Assembly: GCA_003439945.1 (NCBI GenBank) | Contig: QVRM01002206.1 | Span: forward strand, 1 to 64,000 | Reading direction: 5' to 3' | Length of the DNA stretch: 64,000 bases | Origin: Dermanyssus gallinae | Taxonomy: Eukaryota; Arthropoda; Arachnida; Mesostigmata; Dermanyssidae | Shown here: positions 2,331-56,890 of the stretch, one piece after another | Layout of the letters: each line of letters begins with the position of its first letter | How positions within the stretch are numbered: the stretch's first letter is position 1 | Notes under the pieces: model-generated | What the model saw: only the letters and a program-made list of their open reading frames with translations | Told to the model about the DNA's origin: nothing | The model's database searches: none | Program-made: the position numbers and the translations under genes

Positions 2331-3032
2331 TAAGTCCTATAATGGAGAGCGCAAGTACTTATTTGTCACTGCTTAAGCTTAGCTTAGGATGAGATGACGA
2401 CTGCTGGCCAATGGCATCACGTCGCACATAGCTTTCCGGTGCGATTCTAGGCTAAGAGTATCATCGTCCGGCATAGCACGGCATTCATAGCACGCCGCAC
2501 AGATTACCCATCAGTGGGACACGGTCGCGTGTCAGCCGTCTGCGTCACAGTACCTAAACACAGCGTCAAAACACATAATCTAAGTACATCTACTTCGACA
2601 CAGTTCAGGTAGCCGACTTGTAGAGATCGCGCCAAAGTCAACTTACTTGTATATGTTATGAGTTAAAGTCAACTTACTTGCATATATATACTAGTGGAAC
2701 TTAATGAGAGGACATGAGCCACGGCACGGCGTCTCCGCTGGCGGAGGAAAGGCTGTCGGGCTGAGGCCGAGTCGAACGAACGAACTCGAGCTGTTTATTC
2801 ACATAGAGCGAGCTACATTCATGCAGAATTACCTGTTTGCTGGAACCTGTTCTATTTGTAGCAGCTAGACGTGTTTTCCGATTGTAAGACGCAGTGTTAC
2901 GTCGCCAGTAGCACTTAGGCAATGGCAAATGAGCGAACCTGAGACGCGTGTTGTTATGTGTCAGGTCGGCTCTGGTATCTTTTATTCCAATATATTATAT
3001 GATTTTAATATGTATGTATATATAAATATATG

Positions 3033-3040
<8 letters not shown>
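2331..3040. other. No gene recognised
   Basis: Unassigned DNA. A 16 bp sequence (AAAGTCAACTTACTTG) occurs twice, near 2634 and 2665. Nothing else is recognisable. Confidence 0.5.

Positions 3041-3122
<82 letters not shown>
3041..3122. repeat. (AT)n microsatellite, about 41 units
   Basis: An uninterrupted AT dinucleotide run of about 82 bases, preceded by a degenerate TATG/TATA leader from about 3010. It is the longest perfect AT run in the window. Confidence 0.98.
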
Positions 3123-3124
<2 letters not shown>

Positions 3125-10819: not shown

Positions 10820-11430
10820 ACTATTTACTCACACAATGGGTCGCCGTAGCGTTCGTATAGTCATCATTTTAAACGCTGGGAAGGGTCGGACCCTCCCGAG
10901 CATTCGACATCGACACGAATGTTCCACCCGTACTCGTCGCCGATTGGTCGGTTTAATTACGCTTCATCATTCGCGGCGTTGTCTTCGGCGGTACCGCCGT
11001 AGCTCAGGTGCGTGATGAGGTCCGGTGATGAAGACGATGATGATGGTGATGCTATTGATGTTATGGTTGTGGATTGCGCGGTCAGGCGACGATTGTCTAC
11101 GTGCCTTATTATCGACGGCATGGGGCGGAGCGGTCTCATGCCACGGGGTTGTTGACGATTCTTCCTTGGAAGAGGCGTGAAATGCACGTTTGATGATGTG
11201 CTCGGTTGACTGTAGTATCGCCGTCTTGCAGATACATTGTTTATGACGATGCTGGTGTTGTGATTGGTGACGGTTCCTTGGTTGTTGCGCGGCGCCGTCA
11301 ATTAGCTGTTCCCTTTGCTACACAGTGCTTCGTACACTTCGCCACAACATTAAGGAACGGTTCCAGCCCCTCGCCTCGTCATCAAGCCTTTAGGTGAGAG
11401 GTTTTTAGTAGGCATTAAGCCAAACACGTT
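10820..11430. other. No gene recognised
   Basis: A GATGATGAtGGTGATG-type triplet-rich patch lies near 11025-11065. No domains were recognised in the open frames on either strand. Confidence 0.45.
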
Positions 11431-11606
11431 TTCGGGCTGACCTTCAGCCAACATTTAACGTCCAAGGAACTGCTTTTGCATCGCTTCGTAATACAGACTT
11501 TATCAATACAAATGTACAACGATGGGGCTCGAACCCAGAGGAACACATATGTGCCTGCTCTGGTTGCAAGGCGCATGCGAGGGCTTCCACGCCACCGGGC
11601 TTGACC
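11431..11606 (-). mobile_element. SINE-B copy (tRNA-like SINE)
   Basis: On the minus strand the head reads CAAGCCCGGTGGCGTGGAAG, with a B-box-like GGGTTCGAGCCCC near 11525-11538. It continues through the family segment CATTTGTATTGATAAAG and ends near TTGGCTGAAGGTCAGCCC. The match to the copies at 38793 and 38974 runs along the whole length, with many substitutions. Confidence 0.8.
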
Positions 11607-17128: not shown

Positions 17129-17874
17129 AATGACATCAAACAGGTCCTCGTTCTTAATCAGGCGGCGCAGCTGTCTTATGTCAGCCTCCTTAAACAACTC
17201 GGTCACGGATTTAAGCTCGAGGGCGTGCCTTTCCACCCTGCACAGCTTTTCAACCCTTCTTAGAAAGCCATTCTTTTTAGTAATCCAAGATCTTCCAGTC
17301 TTGGAAGGCTCCACACCTGGCATTCGTACATGAATAGTGCACAACATGTGAATTGTACAGTATTAAATAGGCAGAGGCACTTCTTACAATGAACGCACGG
17401 AGTATCCAGTTGCACAAAAGTAAGCATTTTGCGGCAACATGTGTTACCTGCTCAGTGAATGCCAAGGACGTCAAGAAACGTACACCAAAGTCTTCTCCAT
17501 ACTCAATTTTTGTGAGAACGAGGCCGTCTAAAATGTAGTTATGCTTGGCATTTCTAATACTGAGATGCAATACCCCACACTTGTGGGCGGATACTTTTAG
17601 ACCCATTTTCGACAATCACACAATAAAGTACAAGGGCTTCCTAGTACAGTAAGTACCCTGCGGACAACCAGTAAGAACGCTGCCCTCTCTCGATAATGTC
17701 ACCCCGACTTTCTTTCTAAAAGTCCGATCTCTCAAAAAATCAAAAATCCACTGGGTGATTTTGAGGCCAACTCCTTTAGATGGCAGTACTGACATAAGTA
17801 GATCGTGGGGCATAGTTTCGAAGGTCTTCTTGAAGTCACAGTAGATGACGTCTACGGGGAGTCCCTCACTAATC
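17105..17874 (-). pseudogene. CR1/jockey-like LINE ORF2, downstream portion (split by the BEL element)
   Basis: Minus-strand blocks in order are DVIYCDFKKTFETMPHDLL (RT domain containing the first aspartate motif), QWIFDFLRDRTFRKKVGV and VLTGCPQG (RT motif B), then a jump to LKVSAHKCGVLHL, and the post-RT region with DGLVLTKIEYGEDFGVRF and WITKKNGFLRRVEKLC. The YxDD palm segment is missing between the GCPQG block and the LKVSAHKC block, so the copy carried an internal deletion of more than a hundred residues. Frames change several times. The same gene continues at 25009-25560. The clade is inferred from motif style. Confidence 0.8.
17695..17874. repeat. 180 bp direct repeat, left copy (target duplication of BEL element)
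   Basis: Identical, base for base as far as I can compare, with 25009-25188. It ends CACTAATC directly before the LTR start TGTGACGAAC. Both copies are LINE reverse transcriptase sequence on the minus strand, and removing the BEL element plus one copy makes the LINE continuous again. Confidence 0.97.
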
Positions 17875-17979
17875 TGTGACGAACACTATGTGAGTCGTGT
17901 TCTTCTTAGCGCAGCACCCGCTTCACCCTCTATTGGCGCGGGTGTCAGAGCGGCCGTGCAAGAGAGACGTTGAGAGAAA

Positions 17980-18135
17980 GAACATGCTAGAAGCTGCCAG
18001 CACGCGTAATAGAACACTCGAAGCTATCAACACGTGTAATAGAACACTCGAGAGCAGCTAACGCGGAAATGGAACATTCTTTAAGCTATCATCTTGTGTA
18101 AGTGAACATTCAGTAACCGCTAAGACGTGCACATT
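17980..18135 (+). promoter_or_regulatory. U3 tandem array with GAA-NN-TTC (heat-shock-element-like) motifs
   Basis: Units begin at GAACA: 17980, 18012, 18042, 18072 and 18104, spaced 32, 30, 30 and 32 bases. Each unit has GAACAYTC or a variant, then AGCT-type and GTGTAAT-type segments. GAACATTC at 18072-18079 and 18104-18111 fits the inverted GAA-NN-TTC core of a heat shock element, and GAACACTCGAA at 18012 and GAACACTCGAG at 18042 are related. The copy in the 3' LTR lies at about 24375-24530. A role as enhancer is inferred. Confidence 0.6.
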
Positions 18136-18390
18136 ACATTCAAGACGGCCATCTATCGACAGCCGGCCGAACCCATACGCTAAGTAATGCAGATCGAAAA
18201 TAACGTGTAATTATTGTAATACACAGACAACTATAAGAGCAAACACTACTAAGTATGCATGTTAAGTATGCCAGATACATAAACGACACAAAACTATTCA
18301 ATATGTAAAATGTATTGAGAAATGAATAAATGAGAGCACCCGGGAGCGGTGGCGGGAGAGCGCATCTGCATGCACTTTTAAGTCGGCGCG

Positions 18391-18397
18391 TATATAA
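18391..18397 (+). promoter_or_regulatory. LTR TATA box
   Basis: TATATAA inside CGCGTATATAACGGG. It is the only TATA-like site in the GC-rich downstream part of U3, about 220 bases before the LTR end, and is repeated at 24786 in the 3' LTR. It would place the transcript start at about 18420. Confidence 0.6.
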
Positions 18398-18614
18398 CGG
18401 GCCGACATAATGACCTATTTGAGACGAGCCAGAGACATCGAAGAGAACGAATCGACGGCATCTCCGAACGGCCGGTAGTTTCGCGCGCTCACGCCAAGCT
18501 CCCGAGGTTACTGTGTTAACCGACGTTATCGTGTCGTTCTTTCTTGTGAGCGAAACCTCCGTACGTCCCACCGCGTAGCCCTCATCCTGACAGTAAGAAC
18601 GCGGTGCGTGACAA

Positions 18615-18633
18615 TTTGGTGTCAGAAGCAAAA
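18615..18633 (+). other. Primer-binding site
   Basis: TTTGGTGTCAGAAGCAAAA begins two bases after the LTR end. TGG at 18617-18619 would pair with the CCA end of a primer tRNA. TTTGGTGTCAGAAG is a common form of BEL/Pao primer-binding site. The specific tRNA was not determined. Confidence 0.75.
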
Positions 18634-18727
18634 GAACACCATCTTGGTGTTAAAAGTTCAAGAGCCGCATATTAGTGGCAAAGAGTGAAGAAAACCGTTT
18701 TCGTTAGCGCGAATCGTCTTCCTACGG

Positions 18728-21700
18728 TTGTTTCGACAGGCTACTAAGATGCCGAAAACAGAAGACGTCGAAACTCAACCAGAGTCTAAACATAAAGAGC
18801 TAACAAAGCTTGTGAGCCTTAGGAAGCCCCTCAGAGCCGCAATATCAAAGAAGCATAAAGCCGTATCTGAGCTAAGCAGAACGGACCCTACGGATCCGAA
18901 TCGGAAGGACCGTGCGTATGTACTCCTGGCTTCCATCAAAGCAATCCTCGGAAGGCTCACCAACTTAAATGAAGAAATCAACACCCCGCTGTTCAACTGG
19001 TCGGCGGGTGAGTTCGAAAAAGACGTCGAGAAACAGTTCGAGTACGACGATTTGGGCGTGGAAATGATCAGCTCGTTAGAGCTCATTCTTCGTGACGGCT
19101 CTACCGCGACCACGACAACAACAACAGCCGGCGACAACCCACCACAACCGCTTACCACCGCTCAAGACAGAACCGAGAAGATCCCAAAATTCTCAGGTAA
19201 CGTCAAGCAATTCAGAGAATGGTGGCAGTTATTTGAATACTACATACACAAGAACGACAACCTCCCGGACATCGCTAAATACAAGGCCCTCAAGGATTCT
19301 CTCGTTGGCCCGGCGGCGCGAGAGATTTCACACCTCGACTTCGCCCCGGAGCAATACTGCACAGCGATCGACAGGATCAGAGATATCTTCGGCCGGCAAC
19401 AAGATGCAGTCACCCAACACATCAAGGCTATTCGCAATTTGTGTTACACAAGGGACCTTCATCTCACCGAGAAACTAAATAGGTTCGTGTCAACTTTATC
19501 TCAGAACGTGCTAGCTTTGTCGACACTTAACCCAAATAATAGCCAAGCTCCTACTCTAGTACCGATGATTCTAGATTGCATTCCAACATATTTGGCCGAA
19601 ATGTTCATTGAACAGTACAATGAGAAATGCGAATCACCGGAATACAAAGTAGATAAACTAGATGCTCTAATAGAGTTTCTGAAAAGAAAAACAGACGCTA
19701 AAAATGCAGTTGGGCAAAAAGTTTCGACAAACTTTAGGGTGCAGCATGATAAGCAACTCACTAATCACACAGCTTACCAAGATAAACCTTCGGAATACAA
19801 ACTCAACGGAAATAGAAGTCAATTTTCGATCCACACAACAGCATCCAATGTAGACCATTCATGTATCTTCTGCGGTGAAGCACACAATAGCGATAAATGT
19901 AGAAAAGTGTTGTCCTTCGAAGAAAGGAAAAAAATAATTAACGAGAAAAATGCGTGCTTTAGGTGCCTTAGACGCAACCATGTCGTATCGAAGTGCAGAA
20001 GTAGACAAGCGAATTGTCCTAAATGTAACGGTAGACATTTCGCAATCATGTGCAACAAATCAACAACAAACACCACACCACAAGCATTTTCACAGCCGAG
20101 CACATCCCTAAACACGTCATCAAATTCAAACAACAACACTCTTCTCCCAACGGGGTTCATGCAAGTGTTGTCAGAAAACAAAAACATCACGTGCCGAGTT
20201 CTCCTAGATTCAGGTGCCCAACGCTCCTACATTTCCAAAAAAATAATTGACCAATTGGATCTCAAACCAAACGGACGCGAGCGTATAATTATACACACTA
20301 TAGGAGGAAACGTGTCCAATGTGCAAGAATTTGACATATTCGATGTCACATTAAAGAGCAGATTTGCTCCCTATGAGTCAATTAATGTTAGCTGCTTGGG
20401 TATCCCGGAAATAACCAAAGGAGAACTACCAACAATTCAGAATACACACAATCTACACCCAATCGCAGACATCCACGAGGACAATCTCTCCCGCGCGATT
20501 GACATACTGATCGGCTCTGACTTCCTGGCGAGAGTAGGTTCATTAAAAACCAAATCATTCGACGATCTAGTGGCAGTCCTTACCAAATTTGGTTGGATAT
20601 TCCACGGAAAGTCAGGTTCACCCCTAGATGACCGCATTGAATCAGCTCTATGCGCATTAGTGGCCATGCAGCCATGTACGGCGGTGACATCGCGAGGCTA
20701 TCCCATAGAAGACAAACTCAGCAGTCACGCCGCAGAGCTAGACATAGAGTTTTTATGGAAGACTGAGACAATGGGCATAGAGACTCCGTCAGAGAAAAAA
20801 AACACTCTAATTGACGACGAACTAAACAGCTCATTTAGGAACTCTATTGACAGGTTACCTAACGGACGTTACGTCGTTAGTCTCCCATTTAAGGAAAACC
20901 TGCGCGCACTTGGAGATAACGAAAACATAGCCAAGTCTCGCTTAAGAAACCTCCTGTCAAAAATAAGCAGAAACAAGGTTACACTTAAAGCTATAGACGA
21001 CGAAATCGCCAAATATGTAGAAAAAGGTTATGCAGAGCCCGCCCATCCCAAAAAAGACGGTGAATTATCACACTATCTTCCGGTTCTAGCAGTAACAAAA
21101 CTTGCAGACAATCTCCCAACAGAATTAAAAATCAGAGTAGTAAAAGACGCGGGTGCTAGGAGGAAGGACGAAGCTTCCCTCAATGATGTCCTGTTCCAAG
21201 GCCCTAATCTCTTACCAGACATACTTAAGGTACTGTTCCATTTTCGTAAATATCCGATTGCGATCGTGTCTGATATAGAGAAAGCCTTCCTACAGTTCAA
21301 CATTAACCCAGCGCAAAGAACCTTTTTGAGATTTTTCTGGCCTCTTGGTATATCGAAAGATCCAAAGGCACCCTGGAGGGAATTCTGGGGGACGGTGCTA
21401 GATTTTGGTCTAGTTTGTAGTCCGTGGCTACATTGCGCAGGATTGAGGCACCATCTCGAAGGAGAAATAAACTCCCACCCAGAGCACTCCGAATTCATTA
21501 AAGAAATAATTGACAACTTCTACATGGATGATATTGTCACCGGGGCGTGGTCGTTAAATGAAGCTAAGAACAAATTCCAACTTATGAATGAAATATTCTT
21601 AGCAGGACATTTTCCCTTAAAAAAGTGGGCTACCAACTTAGATGCATTGGGAATCTTCATGAAAGATTCAGCTCCGCTACAGGGCACCACAGTTGCCTTT

Positions 21701-22108
21701 GCCGACGAGAATTTTAAGTTCTTGGGAATACGTTGGAATCAGACCTCAGACCATTTAGGCGTCTTTACGGAAAAAGCAGTTTCCTGCTTTAACAACAACA
21801 AAGCCACCAAACGCAACCTCTTAAAAGGTCTAGCGCAAATATTTGATCCTCTCGGCTTAATCTCTCCCATTGTCATAAGCTCGAAAATACTTCTTCAGAG
21901 ACTATGGCAAAAAAGAGTAGATTGGGACACGGTACTGACCGACGCAAACTTAAAAGCGTATAACGACTTCGTTCAAAGTTTACAGTTAAACCCCACCCCA
22001 CAAATTAGCAGACCGTTTAGTTTACCAAGCGACATAAAACCAGTTAAAGAAGAATTACATGTGTTTTGCGACGCAAGCAAGGTAGCTTACGGCTGCGTAA
22101 TTTATTAA
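18728..22108 (+). CDS. BEL/Pao gag-pol, first open segment (gag, protease, RT, start of RNase H)
   Basis: 1126 codons ending at TAA 22106-22108. The start at 18728 is the first ATG of the frame; a second ATG follows at 18749. Residues 1-370 are gag, with a DUF1759-like region around IPKFSGNVKQFREWW. Residues about 377-441 hold three zinc knuckles (CIFCGEAHNSDKC, CFRCLRRNHVVSKC, CPKCNGRHFAIMC). The protease active site is LLDSGA, with Asp at about 494. RT shows IVSDIEKAFLQF and the catalytic YMDD at about residue 932. FCDASKVAYG at about 1112 opens RNase H. The stop falls inside RNase H and the same frame continues directly after it, so this is a recent nonsense change or a sequence error. The product would act in cytoplasmic virus-like particles. 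Confidence 0.95.
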   Translation: MFRQATKMPKTEDVETQPESKHKELTKLVSLRKPLRAAISKKHKAVSELSRTDPTDPNRKDRAYVLLASIKAILGRLTNLNEEINTPLFNWSAGEFEKDVEKQFEYDDLGVEMISSLELILRDGSTATTTTTTAGDNPPQPLTTAQDRTEKIPKFSGNVKQFREWWQLFEYYIHKNDNLPDIAKYKALKDSLVGPAAREISHLDFAPEQYCTAIDRIRDIFGRQQDAVTQHIKAIRNLCYTRDLHLTEKLNRFVSTLSQNVLALSTLNPNNSQAPTLVPMILDCIPTYLAEMFIEQYNEKCESPEYKVDKLDALIEFLKRKTDAKNAVGQKVSTNFRVQHDKQLTNHTAYQDKPSEYKLNGNRSQFSIHTTASNVDHSCIFCGEAHNSDKCRKVLSFEERKKIINEKNACFRCLRRNHVVSKCRSRQANCPKCNGRHFAIMCNKSTTNTTPQAFSQPSTSLNTSSNSNNNTLLPTGFMQVLSENKNITCRVLLDSGAQRSYISKKIIDQLDLKPNGRERIIIHTIGGNVSNVQEFDIFDVTLKSRFAPYESINVSCLGIPEITKGELPTIQNTHNLHPIADIHEDNLSRAIDILIGSDFLARVGSLKTKSFDDLVAVLTKFGWIFHGKSGSPLDDRIESALCALVAMQPCTAVTSRGYPIEDKLSSHAAELDIEFLWKTETMGIETPSEKKNTLIDDELNSSFRNSIDRLPNGRYVVSLPFKENLRALGDNENIAKSRLRNLLSKISRNKVTLKAIDDEIAKYVEKGYAEPAHPKKDGELSHYLPVLAVTKLADNLPTELKIRVVKDAGARRKDEASLNDVLFQGPNLLPDILKVLFHFRKYPIAIVSDIEKAFLQFNINPAQRTFLRFFWPLGISKDPKAPWREFWGTVLDFGLVCSPWLHCAGLRHHLEGEINSHPEHSEFIKEIIDNFYMDDIVTGAWSLNEAKNKFQLMNEIFLAGHFPLKKWATNLDALGIFMKDSAPLQGTTVAFADENFKFLGIRWNQTSDHLGVFTEKAVSCFNNNKATKRNLLKGLAQIFDPLGLISPIVISSKILLQRLWQKRVDWDTVLTDANLKAYNDFVQSLQLNPTPQISRPFSLPSDIKPVKEELHVFCDASKVAYGCVIY

Positions 22109-23767
22109 CGAAAAATCTACAAAGACGGCTCAGCCGCAATCTCTTTTGTGATGTCCAAAGCCAGGGTAGCCCCTCTTAAAGGTATTTGGACAATCCATAG
22201 GCTTGAATTATTAGGAGCTTTAATCGCGGCAAGAATAACTTCCAAAGTAAAAGATTACATTGGCTTGCCCACCGAATCAATTTATTTTTGGTGCGATAAC
22301 TCCTCAGTTCTGGGTTGGATCGGGGATTCCCCAGAGAAATGGAAACCATTCGTATCAAACAGGATTACGGAAATCCAGCAACTAACCAAACCAAGCGCTT
22401 GGAAATACGTTAAGTCTAGTGACAACCCGGCGGATATTCTGAGCAGAGGATCCACACTACTTTCAAAGCAAACCGCCGACCTGTGGCTTGCCGGCCCCAA
22501 CTGGCTATCATACCCAGGGTTCCCTTCCTACGACCTTAACGTCCAGATTCCAGTTGACCCAGAGTCAGAAATAGAAATAAGGAAAAGTTCCGCTTGCCTA
22601 GCAACGTCTACCCATTTAGGAAAAGTAAACGAGAGCATGCTGCAAGCGGATAGATTTTCTACTTGGGCTAAAGCCGTGCGCACAGTGGCATTCATTAAAA
22701 GATGGCTACCCCATCATAGAAAACACGACAGAAACAACACAAGGAACGAGCACATCAGCTCAGAAGAATACAGCTCAGCCGAAGTGACGCTGTTGAAAAA
22801 TATACAAAGTATTTATTTCAGTTCAGAAATGCTTACTGGACGTGCAAACACACCCAAAACTAGTCGCTTGTTTCAGTACAACCCATTCACGGACAATTTA
22901 GGCCTAGTCCGTTGCAGATCAAGACTAGAGAAATCCAGAGAATTATCTTACGAGGAAAAGTATCCCGTGCTCCTCCCGGGCGAGGACCCATTAGTAAGAT
23001 TATTGATCAGTCACATCCATGCATGCAATTGCATACATTCAAGCGGCGTTTCCGCCACCCTTCACCACATACGTTCGAAATACTTTATTCTACATGCTCG
23101 CAGAGCAATTAAAAAAGTTCTATCCAACTGTAAAGTATGCATGAAGTTTAAAGCAAAGGCGGCAGCTGAGCAAACCCCACCTCTACCAGCTTTCCGCTTA
23201 GAGCAAGTGCCACCTTTTACTTACACGGGCATTGACTTTGCAGGACCTATATACGTTAGAGACGACAATGGTATAAGATTAAAAAGCTACATTACATTGT
23301 TTGTCTGCGCAGTTTCCAGAGCAATATATCTGGAGTTGATCCCAGATCTGTCTTGCGCAGAGTTCCTACTGGCACTCCGCAAGTTTCTAAACAGACACAC
23401 CGCCGTCTCAATTATTTTTTCTGACAACGCATCAACATTTAAAAGAGCGGCAAAGGAAATACAATTTATCTTTAAAAACATAAAAGATAACCAAACGCAA
23501 TCATTATTAGCCCTTTCGGGTATAAAATGGGAATTTATCACAGAGCGATCCCCCTGGCACGGAGGCTGGTGGGAAAGAATGGTACAATCGGTGAAACGAC
23601 CCCTTCGTAAAGTACTCGGCACGAATGTTCCCAACTTCAGAGTTCTAGCCACACTTTTAACGGACATTGAGAACATGGTGAACCAAAGACCGTTAACTTC
23701 AGTATCATCCAGCATAGATGATATAAACGCACTCACGCCAGCAGACCCTGTACGGATACAAAAATAA
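22109..23767 (+). CDS. BEL/Pao pol, second open segment (RNase H, integrase)
   Basis: Same frame as the preceding segment, directly after its stop; the first internal ATG is at 22148. RNase H continues with RLELLGALIA, WCDNSSVLGWI and DNPADILSRG. The integrase zinc domain is HIHACNCIHSSGVSATLHH followed by CKVCMKF. The catalytic core has GIDFAGP (Asp codon at 23234), FSDNAS (Asp at 23423) and HGGWWERM (Glu at 23573), which leaves 49 residues between the second Asp and the Glu. A frameshift at about 23747 makes the frame run out at TAA 23765-23767 while the homologous reading moves to another frame. Confidence 0.93.
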   Translation, partial: RKIYKDGSAAISFVMSKARVAPLKGIWTIHRLELLGALIAARITSKVKDYIGLPTESIYFWCDNSSVLGWIGDSPEKWKPFVSNRITEIQQLTKPSAWKYVKSSDNPADILSRGSTLLSKQTADLWLAGPNWLSYPGFPSYDLNVQIPVDPESEIEIRKSSACLATSTHLGKVNESMLQADRFSTWAKAVRTVAFIKRWLPHHRKHDRNNTRNEHISSEEYSSAEVTLLKNIQSIYFSSEMLTGRANTPKTSRLFQYNPFTDNLGLVRCRSRLEKSRELSYEEKYPVLLPGEDPLVRLLISHIHACNCIHSSGVSATLHHIRSKYFILHARRAIKKVLSNCKVCMKFKAKAAAEQTPPLPAFRLEQVPPFTYTGIDFAGPIYVRDDNGIRLKSYITLFVCAVSRAIYLELIPDLSCAEFLLALRKFLNRHTAVSIIFSDNASTFKRAAKEIQFIFKNIKDNQTQSLLALSGIKWEFITERSPWHGGWWERMVQSVKRPLRKVLGTNVPNFRVLATLLTDIENMVNQRPLTSVSSSIDDINALTPADPVRIQK

Positions 23768-24140
23768 AGCAGTTTTTCCAGAAACGTCCCGACTACCAAA
23801 GGACCCCTCTGAATTCTCAGCAATAATCTTCTCAAAGCGTTGGAAGCACCAACAATCCATACTTAGTGCTTTCTGGAAGCGTTTCAAAGAAGAATACTTA
23901 CAGTACCTACGAACCGCTCACACAAGCCAACCCATCGACCGCAGACCCTTGAAAGTCGGCGACTTGTGCATACTAAAAGACCCCTCACCCTCCAGAGCCT
24001 TTTGGCCTCTTTGTCGCGTCATTTCTCTATCAGGGGGGGAGAGGACGGACCTTAGACAAAGGTCCTGTACCGTCAGGATGGCCTCAGGCCTCACATTACG
24101 CCGACCAATACAGTTACTTTATAAACTAGAGGTAGATTAA
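23748..24140 (+). CDS. BEL/Pao pol, third segment (integrase C-terminus) after a frameshift
   Basis: Continues from the ALTPAD block in the next frame through KRWKHQQSILSAFWKRFKEE and VGDLCILKDP, and ends LLYKLEVD at TAA 24138-24140. These are the standard BEL/Pao C-terminal blocks (W-x-H-Q-Q, F-W-K-R, G-D-L-x-x-I-K-D). The break lies in GCAGACCCTG, where the reading shifts by one. Apart from this shift and the stop at 22106, the pol region is open throughout. Confidence 0.85.
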   Translation: MYGYKNKAVFPETSRLPKDPSEFSAIIFSKRWKHQQSILSAFWKRFKEEYLQYLRTAHTSQPIDRRPLKVGDLCILKDPSPSRAFWPLCRVISLSGGERTDLRQRSCTVRMASGLTLRRPIQLLYKLEVD

Positions 24141-24256
24141 TAAATAAATAATAAAAAAATATAACATGAATACATATACACTTGAACATTGTTGCTCCAC
24201 TCCACCCTCAACGACCACAGCATTTGACACGAAACGATGGCTACACTGCACCACCG

Positions 24257-24269
24257 TTTCCAGGGGGAG
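24257..24269 (+). other. Polypurine tract
   Basis: CAGGGGGAG directly precedes the 3' LTR start at 24270, the position expected for plus-strand priming. Confidence 0.8.
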
Positions 24270-25008
24270 TGTGACGAACACTATGTGAGTCGTGTTCTTC
24301 TTAGCGCAGCACCCGCTTCACCCTCTATTGGCGCGGGTGTCAGAGCGGCCGTGCAAGAGAGACGTTGAGAGAAAGAACATGCTAGAAGCTGCCAGCACGC
24401 GTAATAGAACACTCGAAGCTATCAACACGTGTAATAGAACACTCGAGAGCAGCTAACGCGGAAATGGAACATTCTTTAAGCTATCATCTTGTGTAAGTGA
24501 ACATTCAGTAATCGCTAAGACGTGCACATTACATTCAAGACGGCCATCTATCGACAGCCGGCCGAACCCATACGCTAAGTAATGCAGATCGAAAATAACG
24601 TGTAATTATTGTAATACACAGACAACTATAAGAGCAAACACTACTAAGTATGCATGTTAAGTATGCCAGATACATAAACGACACAAAACTATTCAATATG
24701 TAAAATGTATTGAGAAATGAATAAATGAGAGCACCCGGGAGCGGTGGCGGGAGAGCGCATCTGCATGCACTTTCAAGTCGGCGCGTATATAACGGGCCGA
24801 CATAATGACCTATTTGAGACGAGCCAGAGACATCGAAGAGAACGAATCGACGGCATCTCCGAACGGCCGGTAGTTTCGCGCGCTCACGCCAAGCTCCCGA
24901 GGTTACTGTGTTAACCGACGTTATCGTGTCGTTCTTTCTTGTGAGCGAAACCTCCGTACGTCCCACCGCGTAGCCCTCATCCTGACAGTAAGAACGCGGT
25001 GCGTGACA
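24270..25008 (+). repeat. 3' LTR of the BEL/Pao element
   Basis: 739 bp, offset exactly 6395 from the 5' LTR with no indel. Two transitions distinguish the pair (at 24512 and 24773). Confidence 0.97.
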
Positions 25009-25188
25009 AATGTCACCCCGACTTTCTTTCTAAAAGTCCGATCTCTCAAAAAATCAAAAATCCACTGGGTGATTTTGAGGCCAACTCCTTTAGATGGCAG
25101 TACTGACATAAGTAGATCGTGGGGCATAGTTTCGAAGGTCTTCTTGAAGTCACAGTAGATGACGTCTACGGGGAGTCCCTCACTAATC
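25009..25188. repeat. 180 bp direct repeat, right copy (target duplication of BEL element)
   Basis: Begins AATGTCACCCCG immediately after the LTR's final GTGACA and matches 17695-17874 throughout. After 25188 the sequence becomes unique LINE upstream sequence, and before 17695 the left flank is unique LINE downstream sequence. Confidence 0.97.
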
Positions 25189-25560
25189 CGTCGGCCTGCG
25201 TCGCCGAAGAACATAAGCAGACAATCGGTGGTCGATTGGCCCTTACAGAAGGCAAATTGCGTGCTAATCAGCAGATTCTGTTGCTCAGCACTGCTCAGGA
25301 TTGCAAAGCAGACAATTCTCGCCAGAACCTTGCATGTCACCGCTGTGAGGGTACAGGGAGTTTGTTGGCCGGGTACGTCTGGGCCCCACCTTTGTGGGTA
25401 CAGGGGCAACCCAAGCCTTGCGGTAAAGCGATGGTACACGTCCTCCCTCTAGTGGCCTCGCTTCTGCTACCGTCTGAAGGTTCAATTCAAACATTTTCGG
25501 CGGGCGTTCATTTGCTAGAAATTCAACAATTTTGGAACGGACTTTGCTGCCAACTGATCT
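25009..25560 (-). pseudogene. CR1/jockey-like LINE ORF2, upstream portion (split by the BEL element)
   Basis: Minus-strand reading from high to low coordinates gives LYRKAWVAPVPTK, TLTAVTCKVLARIVCF, LLISTQFAFCKGQSTTDCLL and EGLPVDVIYCDFKKTF, then MPHDLL. These are the finger and first palm blocks of a LINE reverse transcriptase in correct order, with one or more frame changes (near 25440 and 25370). The rest of the gene is at 17105-17874. No endonuclease domain was recognised further upstream, so the LINE is probably 5' truncated near 25560. Confidence 0.85.
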
Positions 25561-30109: not shown

Positions 30110-31100
30110 ACACAGACGATATCGTGGCCGAGTACCTGATGACCAATACCATGAATGCTTCCGCGAAGAAAGCTCCCAGACGAATGAAGGAAGAGCACAC
30201 TTCAACTAATATTTAAAACGAAAGGTAACGACACTGACCCTACTAACTAACGAGATATTGTCTGCACCAATGTAACCGATAAGGCCCTAACGTCTCTGGT
30301 AGATACCGCCACAGACTCACTACCTGCAGAACAACATAGCTTTCACCAAAATCGATGAAGAGCAGACGCCGTACACTACTGCTACTACTACTGCTACTAC
30401 TAAAAAGTAAAGTTTTCGTGCTGACCCTCAACCAAGATTTAACGTCCACGGAACTGTTTTTCACATTGCTTCATAGACGGACCCCCATAAATACAAATGT
30501 GCAACGGTGGGGCTCGAACCCGCGCATCTATGTGTCTCCTCCGGTTGCGAGGCGCAGACTTAGGCCACCACGCCACCGGGCTCGACACTACTACTACTAT
30601 TACTTCTAGACTACATAGGCACCACACACATAGACAAGAAAAATAAAATTACTTATGCTGCATTTGTTACCTTTGAAACGGCATTTGACAGTACACCCAG
30701 AACCCAGAGAACATTTAGCAACTGTCCTCCAAAAGCTTTCTCATCACCGAATCATTGTACAATCGTATATAAAATATGTTGAGCTACAATATCATTACAT
30801 ACATAAAAACGGAGATTGGAGATAATTGAAGAACATTGGGGGGCCGGCCATCCAACGAGGCGGTGTGGCACGAGACGACTCAGTGAGCCCTTTCTTATTT
30901 ATTCTCTCCGTAGCGGTCGGGCTGGGGAATCAACTAAGGAAACCACAAGCACCACGCGCCCTTTATGCGGATGACCTGGTGATTGTTGCAAAGTCGAGAG
31001 ACAACATGCAGTACTATCTTGGCCCACAAGTGGTGCCTCAATATTCAAGTAGACACCAATTCGGCAAAGATGAAGATCCTCCGCTTAAGCCGTAGAGGAG
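30110..31100 (+). pseudogene. RTE-like LINE reverse transcriptase fragment, interrupted by a SINE
   Basis: Before the SINE the reading gives ERRKLPDE-type finger sequence, WKKAHTS-like and then NYRDIVCTNVTDKALTSLVD and LPAEQHSFH (RT finger blocks). After it come AAFVTFETAFDSTPR (first catalytic aspartate block), GGVARDDSVSPFLFIL (motif B, normally RQGDxxSPxLF) and ALYADDLVIVAKSRD with the YADD catalytic pair. Frames change repeatedly and the protein is well short of complete. The SPFLFIL and YADDLVIVA style is closest to RTE-type LINEs; this is an inference. Confidence 0.75.
30417..30585 (-). mobile_element. SINE-B copy inserted in the LINE
   Basis: On the minus strand the head is GAGCCCGGTGGCGTGGTGGC, with B-box-like GGGTTCGAGCCCC, CATTTGTATTTATGGGGGTC and the end TTGGTTGAGGGTCAGCACG. 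Triplet-rich CACTACTGCTACTACTACTG and CACTACTACTACTATTACTT stand on the two sides and may be the target-site duplication, though simple sequence makes this uncertain. Confidence 0.88.
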
Positions 31101-33866: not shown

Positions 33867-33925
33867 GTTAAAGTGAATGTGACGATGTGTGTACATGAAT
33901 AAGAATATGTTTGCGCATGCATATA

Positions 33926-35242
33926 CACGGTGTGTTCAAAACGTATCGCGACTTTTGAATTTTCGCGGGTTACGTATATTCGAATTTCGATTTCTTGTGG
34001 CGTTATGTTGGTACTCATGTCTCTCACTTATGCCGACAAGCTCGGCCATTTTGAATGTTCACTTAATTGTTGACAGCTGCTTTGCTTGCACGTGTTTTGG
34101 ATCGTCTTCGATTTTTACCTATTCAAAAAAATGGATCAAAGAACCTGTATCAAATTTTGTGTGAAAAACGAAATTAAGTGCGCGGATGCATTCCGAATGT
34201 TGACTGTGGCATACGGAGAAGCTACCTTGGACCGAAGCAACGTTTATCGGTGGTACAAAATGTTCTCAGAAGGCCGAGAATATGTGAACGACGAAGAGCG
34301 TGCCGGACGCCCGAGCACTTCAACAACAGACGAAAAATTAATGAAGTGGAGAAAATGGTATTGGCCAATCGTCGAATCACCGTTAGAGAAGTTGCTGAGG
34401 ACCTAAACATATCGATTGGCTCGTGCCATTCGATTTTTATCAATGATTTGGGCATGAGACGGGTCGCCGCGAAATTCGTACCAAAATTGCTCAATTGCGA
34501 CCAAAAACAGCATCGCATGAACATTGCTAATGAGATGTTGGACTCTGTCCGCGACGACCCAAATTTGCTCCAGAGGGTCATAACTGGTGACGAATCGTGG
34601 GTTTATGGTTATGACGTAGAAACCAAAGCTCAATCATCTCAATGGAAGCTGCCGCACGAACCAAGACCGAAAAAAGCGCGCCAAGTTCGGTCGAATGTGA
34701 AAGTTTTGCTGACAGTTTTCTTCGATTGCAGGGGCGTGGTGCATCATGAGTTCTTGCCACAGGGTAGAACGGTCAATAAGGAATATTACCTGCAAGTTAT
34801 GCGCAATTTGCGCGAAGCAATCCGCCAGAAACGCCCGGATTTGTGGAAGAACAAAAATTGGCTTTTGCACCACGATAACGCCCCTGCTCACACATCGTTG
34901 CTTGTGCGCGAGTTTTTGGCCAAAAACAACACACTAATGATGCCGCAGCCACCGTATTCCCCAGATCTGGCCCCCTGTGACTTTTTCTTGTTCCCTAAAC
35001 TGAAGAGGCCCATGAAAGGACGACGTTACGCTACGCTTGACGAGATAAAGACGGCATCGAAGGAGGAGCTGAACAAGAAAAAAAAAAATGGTTTTTTGAA
35101 ATGCTTCGAAGATTGGAAAAACCGTTGGCACAAGTGTATAATATCTCATGGGGATTACTTTGAAGGGGACAAAATAGATATTCATGAATAAATGAATAAT
35201 TTTTGAAAAAACACAAAGTCGCGATACGTTTTGAACACCATG
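33926..35242 (+). mobile_element. Mariner transposon, 1317 bp, nearly intact
   Basis: Terminal inverted repeats of about 28 bp: left CACGGTGTGTTCAAAACGTA, right (inverted) CATGGTGTTCAAAACGTATC; they share TTCAAAACGTATCGCGACTT and differ by a 2 bp gap and a substitution near the tip. TA flanks the element on each side (33924-33925 and 35243-35244), as expected for TA target duplication. The length and single-gene content are standard for mariner. The transposase has one visible disabling change. Confidence 0.95.
34131..35191 (+). pseudogene. Mariner transposase with a single frameshift
   Basis: Starts MDQRTCIKFC at 34131 and continues through the first helix-turn-helix and EERAGRPSTSTTDE. A one-base loss in the A-run at 34333-34337 shifts the frame, and reading resumes as INEVEKMVLANRRITVREVA and runs to TAA 35189-35191, about 353 residues in total against a usual 340-350. 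The linker has FVPKLL. The catalytic DD34D triad is present: ITGDESW (Asp codon 34589), HHDNAPAH (34874) and APCDFFLFPK (34979), with YSPDLAP just before. A lysine run (KKKK) at about 35080-35091 replaces less basic residues of relatives. Apart from the frameshift, no stop interrupts the protein. It catalyses cut-and-paste transposition at TA sites in the nucleus. Confidence 0.95.
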
Positions 35243-35244
35243 TA

Positions 35245-36400
35245 TATATATATACATACATGCATATATGTGTGTGTGAGTTTAGTAGAGTTCGCAAAGT
35301 ATATCAAATGTTACTACTATCTAGCGCCCGATTAGGAGCTGTGGGAGACAGCCGCGGCTGGCATCCTCATTACAATGATCGATAAGCCACATCTTTAGCA
35401 CAGATACAATTGCGCTCGGACGCATGGCGGTATTCAACTACGCACACAGCCATGATGGCCTGTCATGTCATGTAATGACATCTGCACAGTAATTGCCGAG
35501 GAAGACAGGGGGCGTGACACAAAGCCCCGTCAGATTCTCGGCGAGCTTCACCGCTTGGATTAGAAGGCTACTGATTGTTCCCAGGTTGCCAGGCGTGTCT
35601 GCAAATGAAAAATGTATCCTGTTCATGCAATTAAAGATCTGTCGTTATTGTATTTAGGCAAATATGTAGCGCGCTGATATCTAGGTTTTACTGTCCCAGG
35701 CTGAGACTAACAGTTAGTTTTTGTCTTCTCGAGTTGCTCAAACGAAGTCGCTATAGTATATTCCTACGCAATGTGAACTCTACGTGCACCATCTAAGGTG
35801 GTTACACTATCAAATAGTATTAGTGTCTTTCGCAGAGAAAATTGGTTGACATTATTATATAGTGACATTATCTAATGTCTATCTCATTCTAATAGTTGCT
35901 AAGGCAGTCATTTCTAGGAACCTAGTGGGAATTAGGCGCTACTACCGGACATCATCTTTCTGCAGCGAAGATCGATTCCCCTTTTAAATAATCACGTGTT
36001 TTTTTTCGGCATTGATACTGAGACAGAAAATACTGAAGATTCTACGCCGTCCGCCTCCCCAGCGTCGCACAGTACACTGGTGTCACTACGTCCTCAGGTC
36101 TGACATCAGTCACTTGGTCCAGCTCCTCTACAGTCTAAAGCTTTGTGGCTCGGGTTCCGACATTTAAAGCCTAATCTAAACTCTTCAGGCCTGCACCACC
36201 TCGACCCTTGCGGCTTGCGGCAGCTGAGAGTGGTCACGTTCGAACCGAGATCCCGAAAATTTGCATTTTTTATACAATTTCGGTGCTGTAGTCAAGTCGT
36301 TGTATATTTGGAAGGCATTCCTACATACAAAGTACTTCTGTGTACCTGGACAATCTCGGGTGGTAAGGAAGGAAATATCAGTATAAGGCAGAAAAGCGGG
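35245..36400. other. No gene recognised
   Basis: About 1.1 kb of unassigned DNA after the mariner; a short TA run sits at 35243-35254. Confidence 0.5.
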
Positions 36401-38660: not shown

Positions 38661-38792
38661 TAACATGTCCAGCCCTCGGTGCATTAAAGATATACCTCAG
38701 GTTAAGTGCCAAGCCCGTAGGGGACGGATGGATAGTCTAGAATTAAAAACAACCTCCTTAAAAAAAGTTTAATTCTAGGTACAAGATGAAGT

Positions 38793-38960
38793 CGAGCCCG
38801 GTGGCGTGGTGCATTCGCATGCGCTTCACGACCGGAGGGGACACATAGGTGCACGGGTTCAAGCCCCACCGTTGTACGTTGGTATTTATGGGATCCGTCT
38901 TACGAAGCAATGCGAAGGCAGTTTCCTGGATGTTAAATGTTGGCTAAGGGTCAGCCAAAA
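38793..38960 (+). mobile_element. SINE-B copy, first of a head-to-tail pair
   Basis: GAGCCCGGTGGCGTGGTGCA head, B-box-like GGGTTCAAGCCCC, GTATTTATGGGATCCGTCTT and GCTAAGGGTCAGCC end, followed by a run of nine A residues. The second copy begins 13 bases after the end. Confidence 0.9.
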
Positions 38961-38973
38961 AAAAACACAAGAC

Positions 38974-39143
38974 GAAGCCCGGTGGCGTGGTGCGTTCGCC
39001 TGCGCCTCGCGACCGGAGGAGACACATAGGGCGGACACATGGGGCTCGCCCCACCGTTGCACATTTGTATTTATGGAGGTCAGTCTATGAAGCAATGTGA
39101 AAGACACTCCCGTGGACGTTAAACCTTGGCTGAGAGTCAGCCC
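38974..39143 (+). mobile_element. SINE-B copy, second of a head-to-tail pair
   Basis: GAAGCCCGGTGGCGTGGTGC head, GTATTTATGGAGGTCAGTCT, end GCTGAGAGTCAGCCCGAC. It differs from its neighbour at many positions and its B-box region is rearranged (GCTCGCCCCACC), so the pair arose by two insertions or an old dimer rather than a recent tandem duplication. Confidence 0.88.
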
Positions 39144-39419
39144 GACAAACGTTTATGTACAAAACGAGCACCAGGCGCACGGGGAGTTACAGCGGTAGCA
39201 ATCACGCGGAAGAGAGGTATGACAGCACTAGTGCTGGAATTTTTGCGGATAGTGTCTATCAATTGGATCGTCAGCAAAGGAGCAAGTATTTTTTAAAGCA
39301 TCCGGGGAATCTACGACAAAGCAACAGAGAGGGAGGGAGAGAGATGGTGGAGCAAGGGCATATTAACAGAGGAAGCTGACAACCGACAAAAATACCATAA
39401 CAGATAAAATGGGAACAAC

Positions 39420-40989: not shown

Positions 40990-43776
40990 CGCGAGTTTCC
41001 TCACGGACGAGACTGATCGAATTTCCCCACGAAGGAAACGCCAAACGAACGGCAGACGGTAGAGGAGAGACTGTCTACTGTCTAGTTTCGCTAAAAACGA
41101 GGGGTTTCACAAACGTGGTAATGCGACGGTTAGATTGACGGGCCACCGCGGTTGGTGGACACGAGGAATCTTACCTCTCATTGTTCTAAATTAAAACAGA
41201 GCAACACGCAAATATTACATTTCATTAATCGGGATTAATGGCCGATATCATTTTTCGAAATCCTAAGCAGAATTTATAAACATAATAAGCATGTAGGGCC
41301 CCAGTAATTATCCTTGAGATGTGTCGATTGGCTTCCTCCCACGTGCATTCTATGTGGCCAACCTCAACCGCCTTTCTACTTCCGCATAGGTGCAGCTTAA
41401 ACCAATAAATTGTCACCGGTGCTCACACCAAACACTTTTTAAAATAAAGGAAGTGTGGTGAGTGGCGTAAACAAGTGAAGGCAGCCGCAACGTCTAGGAA
41501 GACTCCGCGGCAGACCTAAGTAAAGTATTCGGGCTGCTTATTGCTTCATAGACGGACTCCTATAAATACAAATGTATGTACAATGGTGGGGCTCGAGTCC
41601 GCTCACCTATGTGCCTCCTCCGGTTGCGAGGCGCAGACGAATCCACCACGCCACCGGGCTCTACCCGAGGCAGACCTGCTTATTTTCTATTGTCTCGGTG
41701 GTATCCTGTCAAAGGTGAGCCAACGTCGGCTCTGTGGACTCCGAAACTTTCTAAAACCGAACTTGGTTAGCTGATGCAATGTACATTTTGGAACTCTTAA
41801 TCACAAGCCTCTTGAAAGCTTCCGATAAGTAAGCGACCAAAGATATAGGGCAGTGGTTAGCAGCCCGAGTACGTTCTTTCTTGTTTCTGACTATATTGAC
41901 TACTTTTGCGTCCTTTAATCTGGTTGCGAACTAAATGAACAGAATATACTGACGAGCGGACAGGCATCTACGGATACACTCGCTAGGAACATTAGTAGAT
42001 TCGCAGCTCCAGCCCGCCTTCGTATTAGGAGCACCAATTGAACTTCGAGTGTACTGATCTCATCTAATCTGAACGATGCCTGATTCGTCTGCCGTCAGCT
42101 CGGATATCCGTCTGAGTTTTTTTTTCGATTGCGTCCGTAAAAGTTAGCTCTATTATCTATTTGGACAAAAATATTGAAATCCGTAGAAAAAATCAGAGGT
42201 GTACGTTTTAGCCTGGCTCCGGCCAATCCATAGACCGGTAACGTTGACAAATCATGTCGTACAATGAAAATCAAGGCTGCGTACGAAAAGTCGCCCCGTC
42301 TCCCTAGTCAAAGTACGCTAATAGCTGTTGTTATTACGTATTATTAAAAGAAAGTTACCAGCAAAAATTGAACTATCGATATAGAGGGGATGCGTTGTGC
42401 GTGGGTGGATTGGACCTTACACTGCGCGATGTTACACCTCTAACGAGTCCTCTAGCGACCGAATATAAATTGCGATCTCAAAACGTCATTTTGTGCCTTC
42501 TTCAGCGCAATCACAGTAAAAATGGTTCGACTTTACAAATGTCGCTTGCCGCCATTTTATTTCAATTTATAGTATTTGATTTTTTAATCATGACTATAAG
42601 CATTAAAAATGTTCGTCTTTTTAATACAAATGCAACGTTCATTGATTTCATTGTTCTGCTTTTTGCTCTCGTGTGTGTGTGTTAGGTGCTACCGTTGTGG
42701 AACTTGTACGTTTCGTTGTCTAGTACATACTGTGTTCGACCCAAACATGGGAATTGGAAACGAAAGTAGCACAGGAGGTGCTAAAAACAAAGCACAGAAA
42801 ATGCAAAGAGAGACAGAATCTTTTGAGGCCGGCACGGCTGAAGAAAGCGCAACTTTGAGTCAAACGGGTTTGTAAGGGCTGGGACAAAGTGCGCTTGACA
42901 GGTGGAGGAACCCGTGAGCGACCCCGGCCAATTGATCCGATAGGGCACTCGCCACTTCTCCTGATGGCTCACAGCACTTTTCTATGGAGATCTGGGCCAT
43001 CAGAGAGTGAAGTTTAAGAGGGGAGGTGCGTTTGGTGGGTGTGAGTCTCAGCGGCGTAACATCCATCCGCTAGGGTCGAGTCCCACACAGCTCGAGATGG
43101 AAAGCAATATTTCCTACTCGTAGTGGTAGCGCGTAACTGAATTTGACCCTCTTCCAAAAAAACGTCTCGTTGTCTCACCAGACTATGCTCCTGAAATTTT
43201 TAGTAAACTCTACGACAAGGAATTGATATTTTTAGAACAATGACGTTAGAGCTCTAGTTAGAACTACCAGATGGCGATTTAGCAGCTACCTATAGCGCTC
43301 ATTCTTAAGTGAACCCGGCAAACTAACTATGACTACAATGCGCTGCTCTATTGTTAGTGGTCAGTTTGAATAGGCACCGAGACGGGAAACTGTTTGCATC
43401 GAAGAATTATAATTTACGAGTTAAGTGTCTGCTAGCGTTAGCTTAGAACGAACCTTGCTAAGACCATTGACCGCTAGCCTGCTAGGGTAACATGCTAACG
43501 CTGTCGGTGGCGATGGCAGCGGAGAGACTCTCAAAGTAAAGTTTTGCTTGTTTGCTACAATGTCCATCAGCGACTTTGATGCAATTCCTCGCTTTTCATT
43601 TCCGTTCATGTAAGACACATAGAAATTAAATTTTCCCATCAAATTGCAGATTTGGGTTAGTATAAATACAATCGGCTGCTTTTGATCAAGACGGAATGCT
43701 ATGTCTATCCACATTTGTAATAATCGCAAAATATCACAATTTACGTGACCATCTCCATAATTTGAGCTCCACGACA
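40990..43776. other. No gene recognised apart from one SINE-B copy
   Basis: Besides the SINE at 41540-41663, this stretch has an unrecognised 88-codon open frame at 42609-42875 whose second half is charged (MGIGNESSTGGAKNKAQKMQ). A GGGTCGAGTCCC near 43072-43083 resembles a B box but has no convincing A box. An unrecognised 131-codon minus-strand frame runs 43421-43816. Confidence 0.4.
41540..41663 (-). mobile_element. SINE-B copy, 5' two-thirds
   Basis: The minus strand begins AGAGCCCGGTGGCGTGGTGG, has ACTCGAGCCCCACC at the B box and CATTTGTATTTATAGGAGTC, and stops near TCTATGAAGCAATAAG. The 3' end found in other copies is missing. Confidence 0.85.
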
Positions 43777-43975: not shown

Positions 43976-44036
43976 AATTACATCCACATGTTGTCAGCAG
44001 AAGCAATCTACCGAGCTATGGCGGTACTATGATGAG

Positions 44037-44132
44037 GATAAGATACATAAAGAAGTTACGTTCCGATGTTCCTTCCTACAACGGGATAAGATACATAAAG
44101 AAGTTACGTTCCGATGTTCCTTCCTACAGCGG
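44037..44132. repeat. 48 bp tandem duplication (two copies)
   Basis: GATAAGATACATAAAGAAGT starts at 44037 and 44085. The copies are nearly identical (one A/G difference near the unit end), so the duplication is recent. Confidence 0.95.
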
Positions 44133-44139
44133 GAGCAAG

Positions 44140-56809: not shown

Positions 56810-56890
<81 letters not shown>

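What the first reader, a model, noticed from the sequence alone, without database searches (positions are those of the whole stretch)
17695..25188. BEL/Pao retrotransposon flanked by a perfect 180 bp target duplication
The 180 bp before the 5' LTR (17695-17874) and after the 3' LTR (25009-25188) are identical, and each copy abuts an LTR end exactly. BEL/Pao integrase is known to make duplications of about 4-6 bp, and no such short duplication is present (left flank ends TAATC, right flank begins AATGT). Taking out the element and one copy restores a continuous LINE, so the 180 bp is a true target duplication. Possible routes are integration into widely staggered nicks, capture of the cDNA during break repair with long overhangs, or insertion between two pre-existing tandem copies. 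The exact coincidence of the boundaries with the LTR tips makes random later duplication unlikely.
Basis: partly seen in the sequence, partly recalled or inferred. Interest (0 to 1): 0.85.

Follow-up and report, generated by a model that had tools for sequence, protein, structure and literature searches.

The report
Retrotransposon with 180-base target duplication
A retrovirus-like jumping element sits between two identical 180-base copies of host DNA where about five bases are usual; this most likely records a botched insertion of a kind already seen in some retroviruses.

Summary
Window 17695-17874 and 25009-25188 are identical over 180 of 180 bases. The match stops exactly at both ends, and each copy abuts a complete TG...CA LTR tip. 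The element is a BEL/Pao retrotransposon inside a degraded LINE-like reverse transcriptase. No exact short duplication spans the junctions, and the duplicates fit the age of the LTRs (2 of 739 differ).

Long duplications are already in print for retroviruses: HERV-K(HML-2), 111 and 250 bp with empty sites found and up to 450 bp inferred; XMRV, 273 bp in 1 of 15; HIV with impaired integration, hundreds or thousands of bp. Best explanation: uncoordinated integration, the two cDNA ends joined 180 bp apart, the second by integrase or host repair, and the gap filled. Live rivals: recombination (or an assembly switch) between two nearby insertions, and other assembly artefacts. Insertion between older tandem copies is unlikely but not excluded. 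The own-genome search did not complete and no other copy was found, so reads, an empty allele and a family survey are missing. A new member of a known kind; my limited paper searches showed no BEL/Pao example.

The parts
17695..17874 (.). Left copy of the 180-bp direct repeat (host LINE-like sequence)
   Evidence: Identical to 25009-25188, 0 bases of further extension
17875..18613 (+). 5' LTR, 739 bp, TGTGACG...GTGACA
   Evidence: 2 differences to the 3' LTR
18617..18629 (+). Putative primer binding site (TGGTGTCAGAAGC) after a 3-nt spacer ATT
   Evidence: Sequence; assignment by the general rule that the PBS begins with TGG, recalled
18689..22105 (+). Open stretch with gag (DUF1759, three CCHC-like knuckles), protease, RT (YMDD) and the first part of the Pao A17 domain; followed by an in-frame stop at 22106-22108
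   Evidence: Pfam (protease and RVT_1 below curated cut-offs); motifs; ORFs
22109..23764 (+). Same frame after the stop: rest of the A17 domain, H2C2 zinc finger, integrase core; predicted catalytic residues D376, D439, E489 of this stretch
   Evidence: Pfam (rve below its cut-off, H2C2 above); D376 and E489 invariant and D439 at 90% or more in 15 aligned sequences; positions; catalytic role recalled
23727..24140 (+). ORF in another frame that looks like the integrase C-terminal part, so the copy is also frame-disrupted near 23.7 kb
   Evidence: ORF; different frame; likeness to C-terminal parts of homologues judged by eye
24261..24269 (+). Putative polypurine tract (CAGGGGGAG) directly before the 3' LTR
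   Evidence: Sequence; assignment recalled from LTR-element anatomy
24270..25008 (+). 3' LTR, 739 bp
25009..25188 (.). Right copy of the 180-bp direct repeat
17277..17694 (-). LINE-like remainder downstream (LINE orientation) of the insertion; degraded
   Evidence: the 17277-17615 stretch has no Pfam match; LINE likeness judged by eye
25189..25445 (-). LINE-like reverse transcriptase fragment upstream (LINE orientation) of the insertion
   Evidence: RVT_1 in 24921-25445, E 0.0018, 18.5 bits, below its cut-off of 29.6

Best explanation
A BEL/Pao retrotransposon inserted by uncoordinated integration. The processed right (U5) cDNA end was joined to the + strand just before 17695, and the left (U3) end to the - strand just after 17874, 180 bp apart instead of about 5, in the 5'-staggered sense. 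Gap filling with strand displacement then copied the 180 bp to both sides. Two variants are included: both ends joined by integrase, or the right end by integrase and the left by host repair. Shown: the two exact junctions, the identical copies and the complete LTR tips. Inferred: that both joints belong to one event, that integrase made at least the right-hand joint, that the target had one copy, and the fill-in.
For: Copies identical and ending exactly at both LTR tips. The right tip lacks the ATT that lies between CA and the primer site in the 5' copy (at most one A is ambiguous), as expected after integrase 3' processing (sequence; rule recalled). Zero differences in 180 bp fits the LTR age (P 0.61 at the LTR rate). 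Precedents: HML-2 duplications of 111 and 250 bp with empty sites found, and eight over 10 bp in Table 2 of a paper that infers 451 putative duplications; XMRV 273 bp in 1 of 15, ascribed by its authors to uncoordinated joining; HIV under integrase inhibitor, where the commonest aberrant form is a host duplication that can be hundreds or thousands of bp.
Against: The mechanism cases have a damaged viral end (XMRV: 5-bp loss at U3) or impaired integrase; the HIV no-drug row had 0 aberrant of 99 (data taken from an earlier paper). The aberrant HIV end was often, though not always, truncated, whereas here both tips and the predicted catalytic residues are intact. One ancestral copy is not shown. 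No reads, empty allele or second family member were available. The HML-2 authors themselves allow that their long repeats could be products of rearrangement.
Confidence: 0.67

Rival explanations
1. Recombination (crossover or gene conversion) inside the element between two alleles in which the same family had inserted 180 bp apart, one at each boundary. Each original insertion had a normal short duplication; the recombinant keeps only one half of each and so shows none.
For: Predicts exact TG...CA tips at both junctions, no short duplication and a 180-bp repeat, all observed. A related 'pseudo-TSD' route is proposed for HML-2.
Against: Needs two independent insertions of one family within 180 bp, both segregating together; whether this is an insertion hot spot could not be tested.
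Confidence: 0.15
2. Assembly artefact: a switch between haplotypes inside the element, or a contig that ends at the LTR tip joined to an overlapping contig without merging the overlap.
For: LTR ends are natural breakpoints of assembly graphs (recalled) and the two LTRs are nearly identical. No reads could be checked; the own-genome request did not complete.
Against: No N in the window. A haplotype switch would still need two insertions 180 bp apart; a bad join would need a contig that starts at an arbitrary LINE base.
Confidence: 0.12
3. Normal insertion at the junction of two pre-existing tandem 180-bp (or 176-bp) copies.
For: 180 is a multiple of 3, so the LINE frame cannot exclude it, and a two-copy peptide scores no worse against RVT_1 than one copy (27.6 against 21.0 bits). 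AAT at both boundaries could be a microhomology, and AATC/AATG could be a decayed 4-bp duplication.
Against: Needs a hit at one exact base pair out of about 180, and either no short duplication or a single substitution exactly at 17874 that recreates the right-hand base. The copies show no difference that would make them older than the LTRs.
Confidence: 0.05

Closest known systems
HERV-K(HML-2) loci with unusually long target site duplications (7p21.2 250 bp, 6p25.2 111 bp, others to 450 bp; Kahyo 2017 PMC5488345: abstract, passages and Discussion section read; Mamedov 2004 known only from citations)
   Same: Long direct repeats beside LTRs, with the empty site carrying one copy at two loci; same open choice between long-stagger integration and rearrangement
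   Different: Human endogenous retrovirus; 5 of the 8 loci over 10 bp in Table 2 are solo LTRs, copies carry 0-3 mismatches, one has 2 nt between repeat and LTR. Here a two-LTR element, no mismatch, exact abutment, no empty allele seen
XMRV clone C-3, 273-bp duplication (Kim 2010 PMC2857682, passages read)
   Same: Insertion with a duplication of the same order; authors propose uncoordinated joining of the two ends
   Different: Gammaretrovirus in cultured cells; its U3 end lacked 5 bp, whereas both tips are complete here
Aberrant HIV-1 integrations under weak integrase inhibition (PMC5041404, passages read)
   Same: Commonest aberrant form is a host duplication, hundreds or thousands of bp
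   Different: Impaired integrase; one viral end abnormal and often truncated
Ordinary Drosophila LTR insertions (PMC8090852, passages read): roo and diver, median 5-bp duplication (that these two are BEL/Pao is recalled)
   Same: Same superfamily as roo and diver
   Different: Short duplication; here none. The same paper reports median 23-26 bp for opus, Tabor and mdg1 and leaves it open

Membership tests
BEL/Pao LTR retrotransposon | Pao A17 domain with RT, DUF1759-type gag and H2C2/rve integrase in that order between LTRs | tested here: met
   DUF1759 8.8e-20, Peptidase_A17 1.4e-25 and 2.8e-13, H2C2 above its cut-off; RVT_1, rve and protease matches below their curated cut-offs
BEL/Pao LTR retrotransposon | Closest relatives are BEL/Pao polyproteins | tested here: met
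   324 hits at E 0.001 among 7992 scored candidates, 120 listed, most of those with PF05380; best named ones are Galendromus occidentalis proteins (51%, 47%)
BEL/Pao LTR retrotransposon | LTRs with TG...CA ends, PBS and PPT | tested here: met
   PBS and PPT by position and recalled rules
Canonical concerted integrase insertion | 4-6 bp target site duplication abutting both LTRs | tested here: not met
   no exact repeat of 3-20 bp; AATC/AATG 3 of 4
Long target site duplication by uncoordinated integration | Long direct repeat abutting both LTR tips | tested here: met
Long target site duplication by uncoordinated integration | Pre-integration site carries one copy | tested here: inconclusive
   Joined flanks read through in frame with one copy, but a two-copy control scores higher on RVT_1 (27.6 against 21.0 bits); no empty allele seen
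Long target site duplication by uncoordinated integration | Both joints made in a single event | not testable with these tools
   Needs population or sister-species data

The most novel reading that the evidence does not exclude
The integrase of this BEL/Pao lineage often or always joins its two ends far apart, so the family as a whole leaves duplications of many tens to hundreds of bases instead of 4-6.
Probability: 0.04. Interest if true: 0.85.

Novelty: new member of a known kind. Interest (0 to 1): 0.4.

Why it matters
If true, rare uncoordinated insertions with hundreds of duplicated bases occur in BEL/Pao elements as well as in vertebrate retroviruses. They would also be a source of small duplications, and a trap for programs that seek only 4-6 bp duplications. 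A family survey in a genome with many young copies would measure the error rate of integration in nature.

Tried and rejected
Searches that found nothing useful: LINE-like fragment against the protein collection, 0 of 43 candidates at E 0.001; integrase stretch in viral contigs, no pattern match, and in genome contigs, 18 pattern matches and none confirmed. In the window's self-comparison (60 longest alignments shown, down to 82 bp) the LTRs and the 180-bp copies match only each other; the 180 bp shares no 14-mer with the rest of the window.

Result against my own argument: I first took the run of RVT_1 from profile position 11-107 to 11-122 across the joined flanks (18.5 to 21.0 bits, both below the cut-off of 29.6) as support for one ancestral copy. 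A two-copy control scored 27.6 bits, so this test does not discriminate and I withdrew it. I raised the tandem rival from 0.04 to 0.05 for that. I also merged the host-repair variant (0.14) into the best explanation (0.55), giving 0.67.

Ideas set aside. (1) LINE-machinery insertion of element RNA: both LTRs are complete, which an RNA copy would not have (recalled anatomy). (2) Nucleosome-length stagger: 180 bp is near a nucleosome repeat (recalled), but the published lengths seen (13, 18, 61, 96, 111, 206, 250, 273, 450) show no grouping there by eye. (3) Target resemblance to the LTR tip: the right junction reads GTGACA AA TGTCAC, a 6-bp inverted repeat; 0.69% of 20,000 random site pairs do as well, but it was noticed after the fact and stays unexplained.

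Literature: (listings with abstract starts; several asked for fewer than all terms) and passages of PMC8781664, PMC5488345, PMC2857682, PMC6911290, PMC5041404, PMC2836005, PMC10742618, PMC8090852, PMC4558846. I saw no long duplication at a BEL/Pao element in them; papers outside this open-licence library were not searched.

Full report
Observation. The LTRs are 739 bp (17875-18613 and 24270-25008) with 2 C/T differences, begin TGTGACG and end GTGACA, and directly abut the repeats. No exact short repeat of 3-20 bp lies across the junctions. The last four and first four bases (AATC, AATG) agree at three of four, which happens by chance about once in twenty (own arithmetic).

The element. Pfam finds DUF1759 (gag) and the Pao A17 domain strongly, an H2C2 zinc finger above its cut-off, and protease, RT and integrase-core matches below theirs. 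The gag stretch has three CCHC-like knuckles and the RT has YMDD. One in-frame stop lies at 22106-22108, and what looks like the integrase C-terminal part lies in another frame (by eye), so this copy is broken. Of the three predicted catalytic integrase residues, two are invariant and one is at 90% or more in 15 aligned sequences. All six named hits in the top 12 for the integrase stretch are proteins of the mite Galendromus occidentalis; the other six have no name. A mite host is therefore suggested but not shown.

The target. The flanks are a degraded LINE-like reverse transcriptase on the minus strand (RVT_1 E 0.0018, below its cut-off; LINE likeness by eye). With the element and one copy taken out, the reading frame runs through and ends at a stop 25 codons past the junction. 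This does not prove one ancestral copy: 180 is a multiple of three, and a two-copy control peptide scores 27.6 bits on RVT_1 against 21.0 for one copy. What favours one copy is that reverse transcriptases have one such catalytic block (recalled), unless this dead copy was duplicated later.

Timing. At the LTR rate (2 of 739), zero differences in 180 bp has probability 0.61. The duplication is not measurably older than the insertion.

Mechanism. A complete tip at each junction means each joint was made at a proper cDNA end. In the 5' LTR copy, three bases (ATT) separate the terminal CA from the TGG that normally starts the primer site. At the right junction they are gone (one A could be shared), as after integrase 3' processing (rule recalled). 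At the left end the cDNA may naturally begin at TG, so that joint does not tell integrase from host ligation. The geometry is that of an ordinary integrase product with the two strand joints 180 bp apart in place of about 5. Strand-displacing repair then yields a 180-bp duplication (inferred).

What is known. Kahyo 2017 (PMC5488345; abstract, passages and Discussion) validated 250- and 111-bp duplications at HML-2 loci by their empty sites. Its Table 2 lists eight over 10 bp (13, 18, 61, 96, 111, 206, 250, 450), with 451 putative duplications inferred in all. Kim 2010 (PMC2857682; passages) found 273 bp in 1 of 15 XMRV proviruses and blamed uncoordinated joining after loss of the U3 tip. Aberrant HIV integrations most commonly carry a host duplication that can be hundreds or thousands of bp, with one normal end and one end often but not always truncated; the no-drug row, taken from an earlier paper, has 0 aberrant of 99 (PMC5041404; passages). 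Drosophila roo and diver leave a median 5 bp, while opus, Tabor and mdg1 gave medians of 23-26 bp that the authors leave open (PMC8090852; passages). So the kind of event is known, at rates from 0 of 99 to 1 of 15 in the sets seen, and this would be a BEL/Pao example.

Limits. The own-genome search did not complete and no related locus was found. Hence an assembly artefact or a recombinant of two insertions cannot be excluded. The Kahyo authors raise a comparable rearrangement model for their own loci.

Verdict. The sequence is as described; it is most likely a rare uncoordinated integration, a new member of a known kind.

Noticed in passing
33921-35249: Mariner-like DNA transposon: 337-aa open frame at 34178-35191 with Transposase_1 (4.9e-19) and 35-nt inverted repeats 89% complementary at 33921-33955 and 35215-35249.
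   Followed up: partly
25003-25016 (right junction): 3' LTR end and target form GTGACA AA TGTCAC, a 6-bp inverted repeat; 0.69% of 20,000 random site pairs match it, noticed after the fact.
   Followed up: partly
11426-11605, 30408-30586, 38789-39155, 41540-41661: Family of roughly 120-180 bp repeats 76-87% alike, two of them adjacent at 38789-38956 and 38969-39142. The 180-bp duplication shares no 14-mer with them.
   Followed up: no
17990-18051 and 24385-24446: Each LTR holds about two tandem copies of a 30-bp unit, function unknown.
   Followed up: no
44036-44134: About two nearly identical (98%) tandem copies of a 48-bp unit.
   Followed up: no
3008-3123, 56811-56887 and others: Long AT dinucleotide arrays, possible weak points for assembly.
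   Followed up: no
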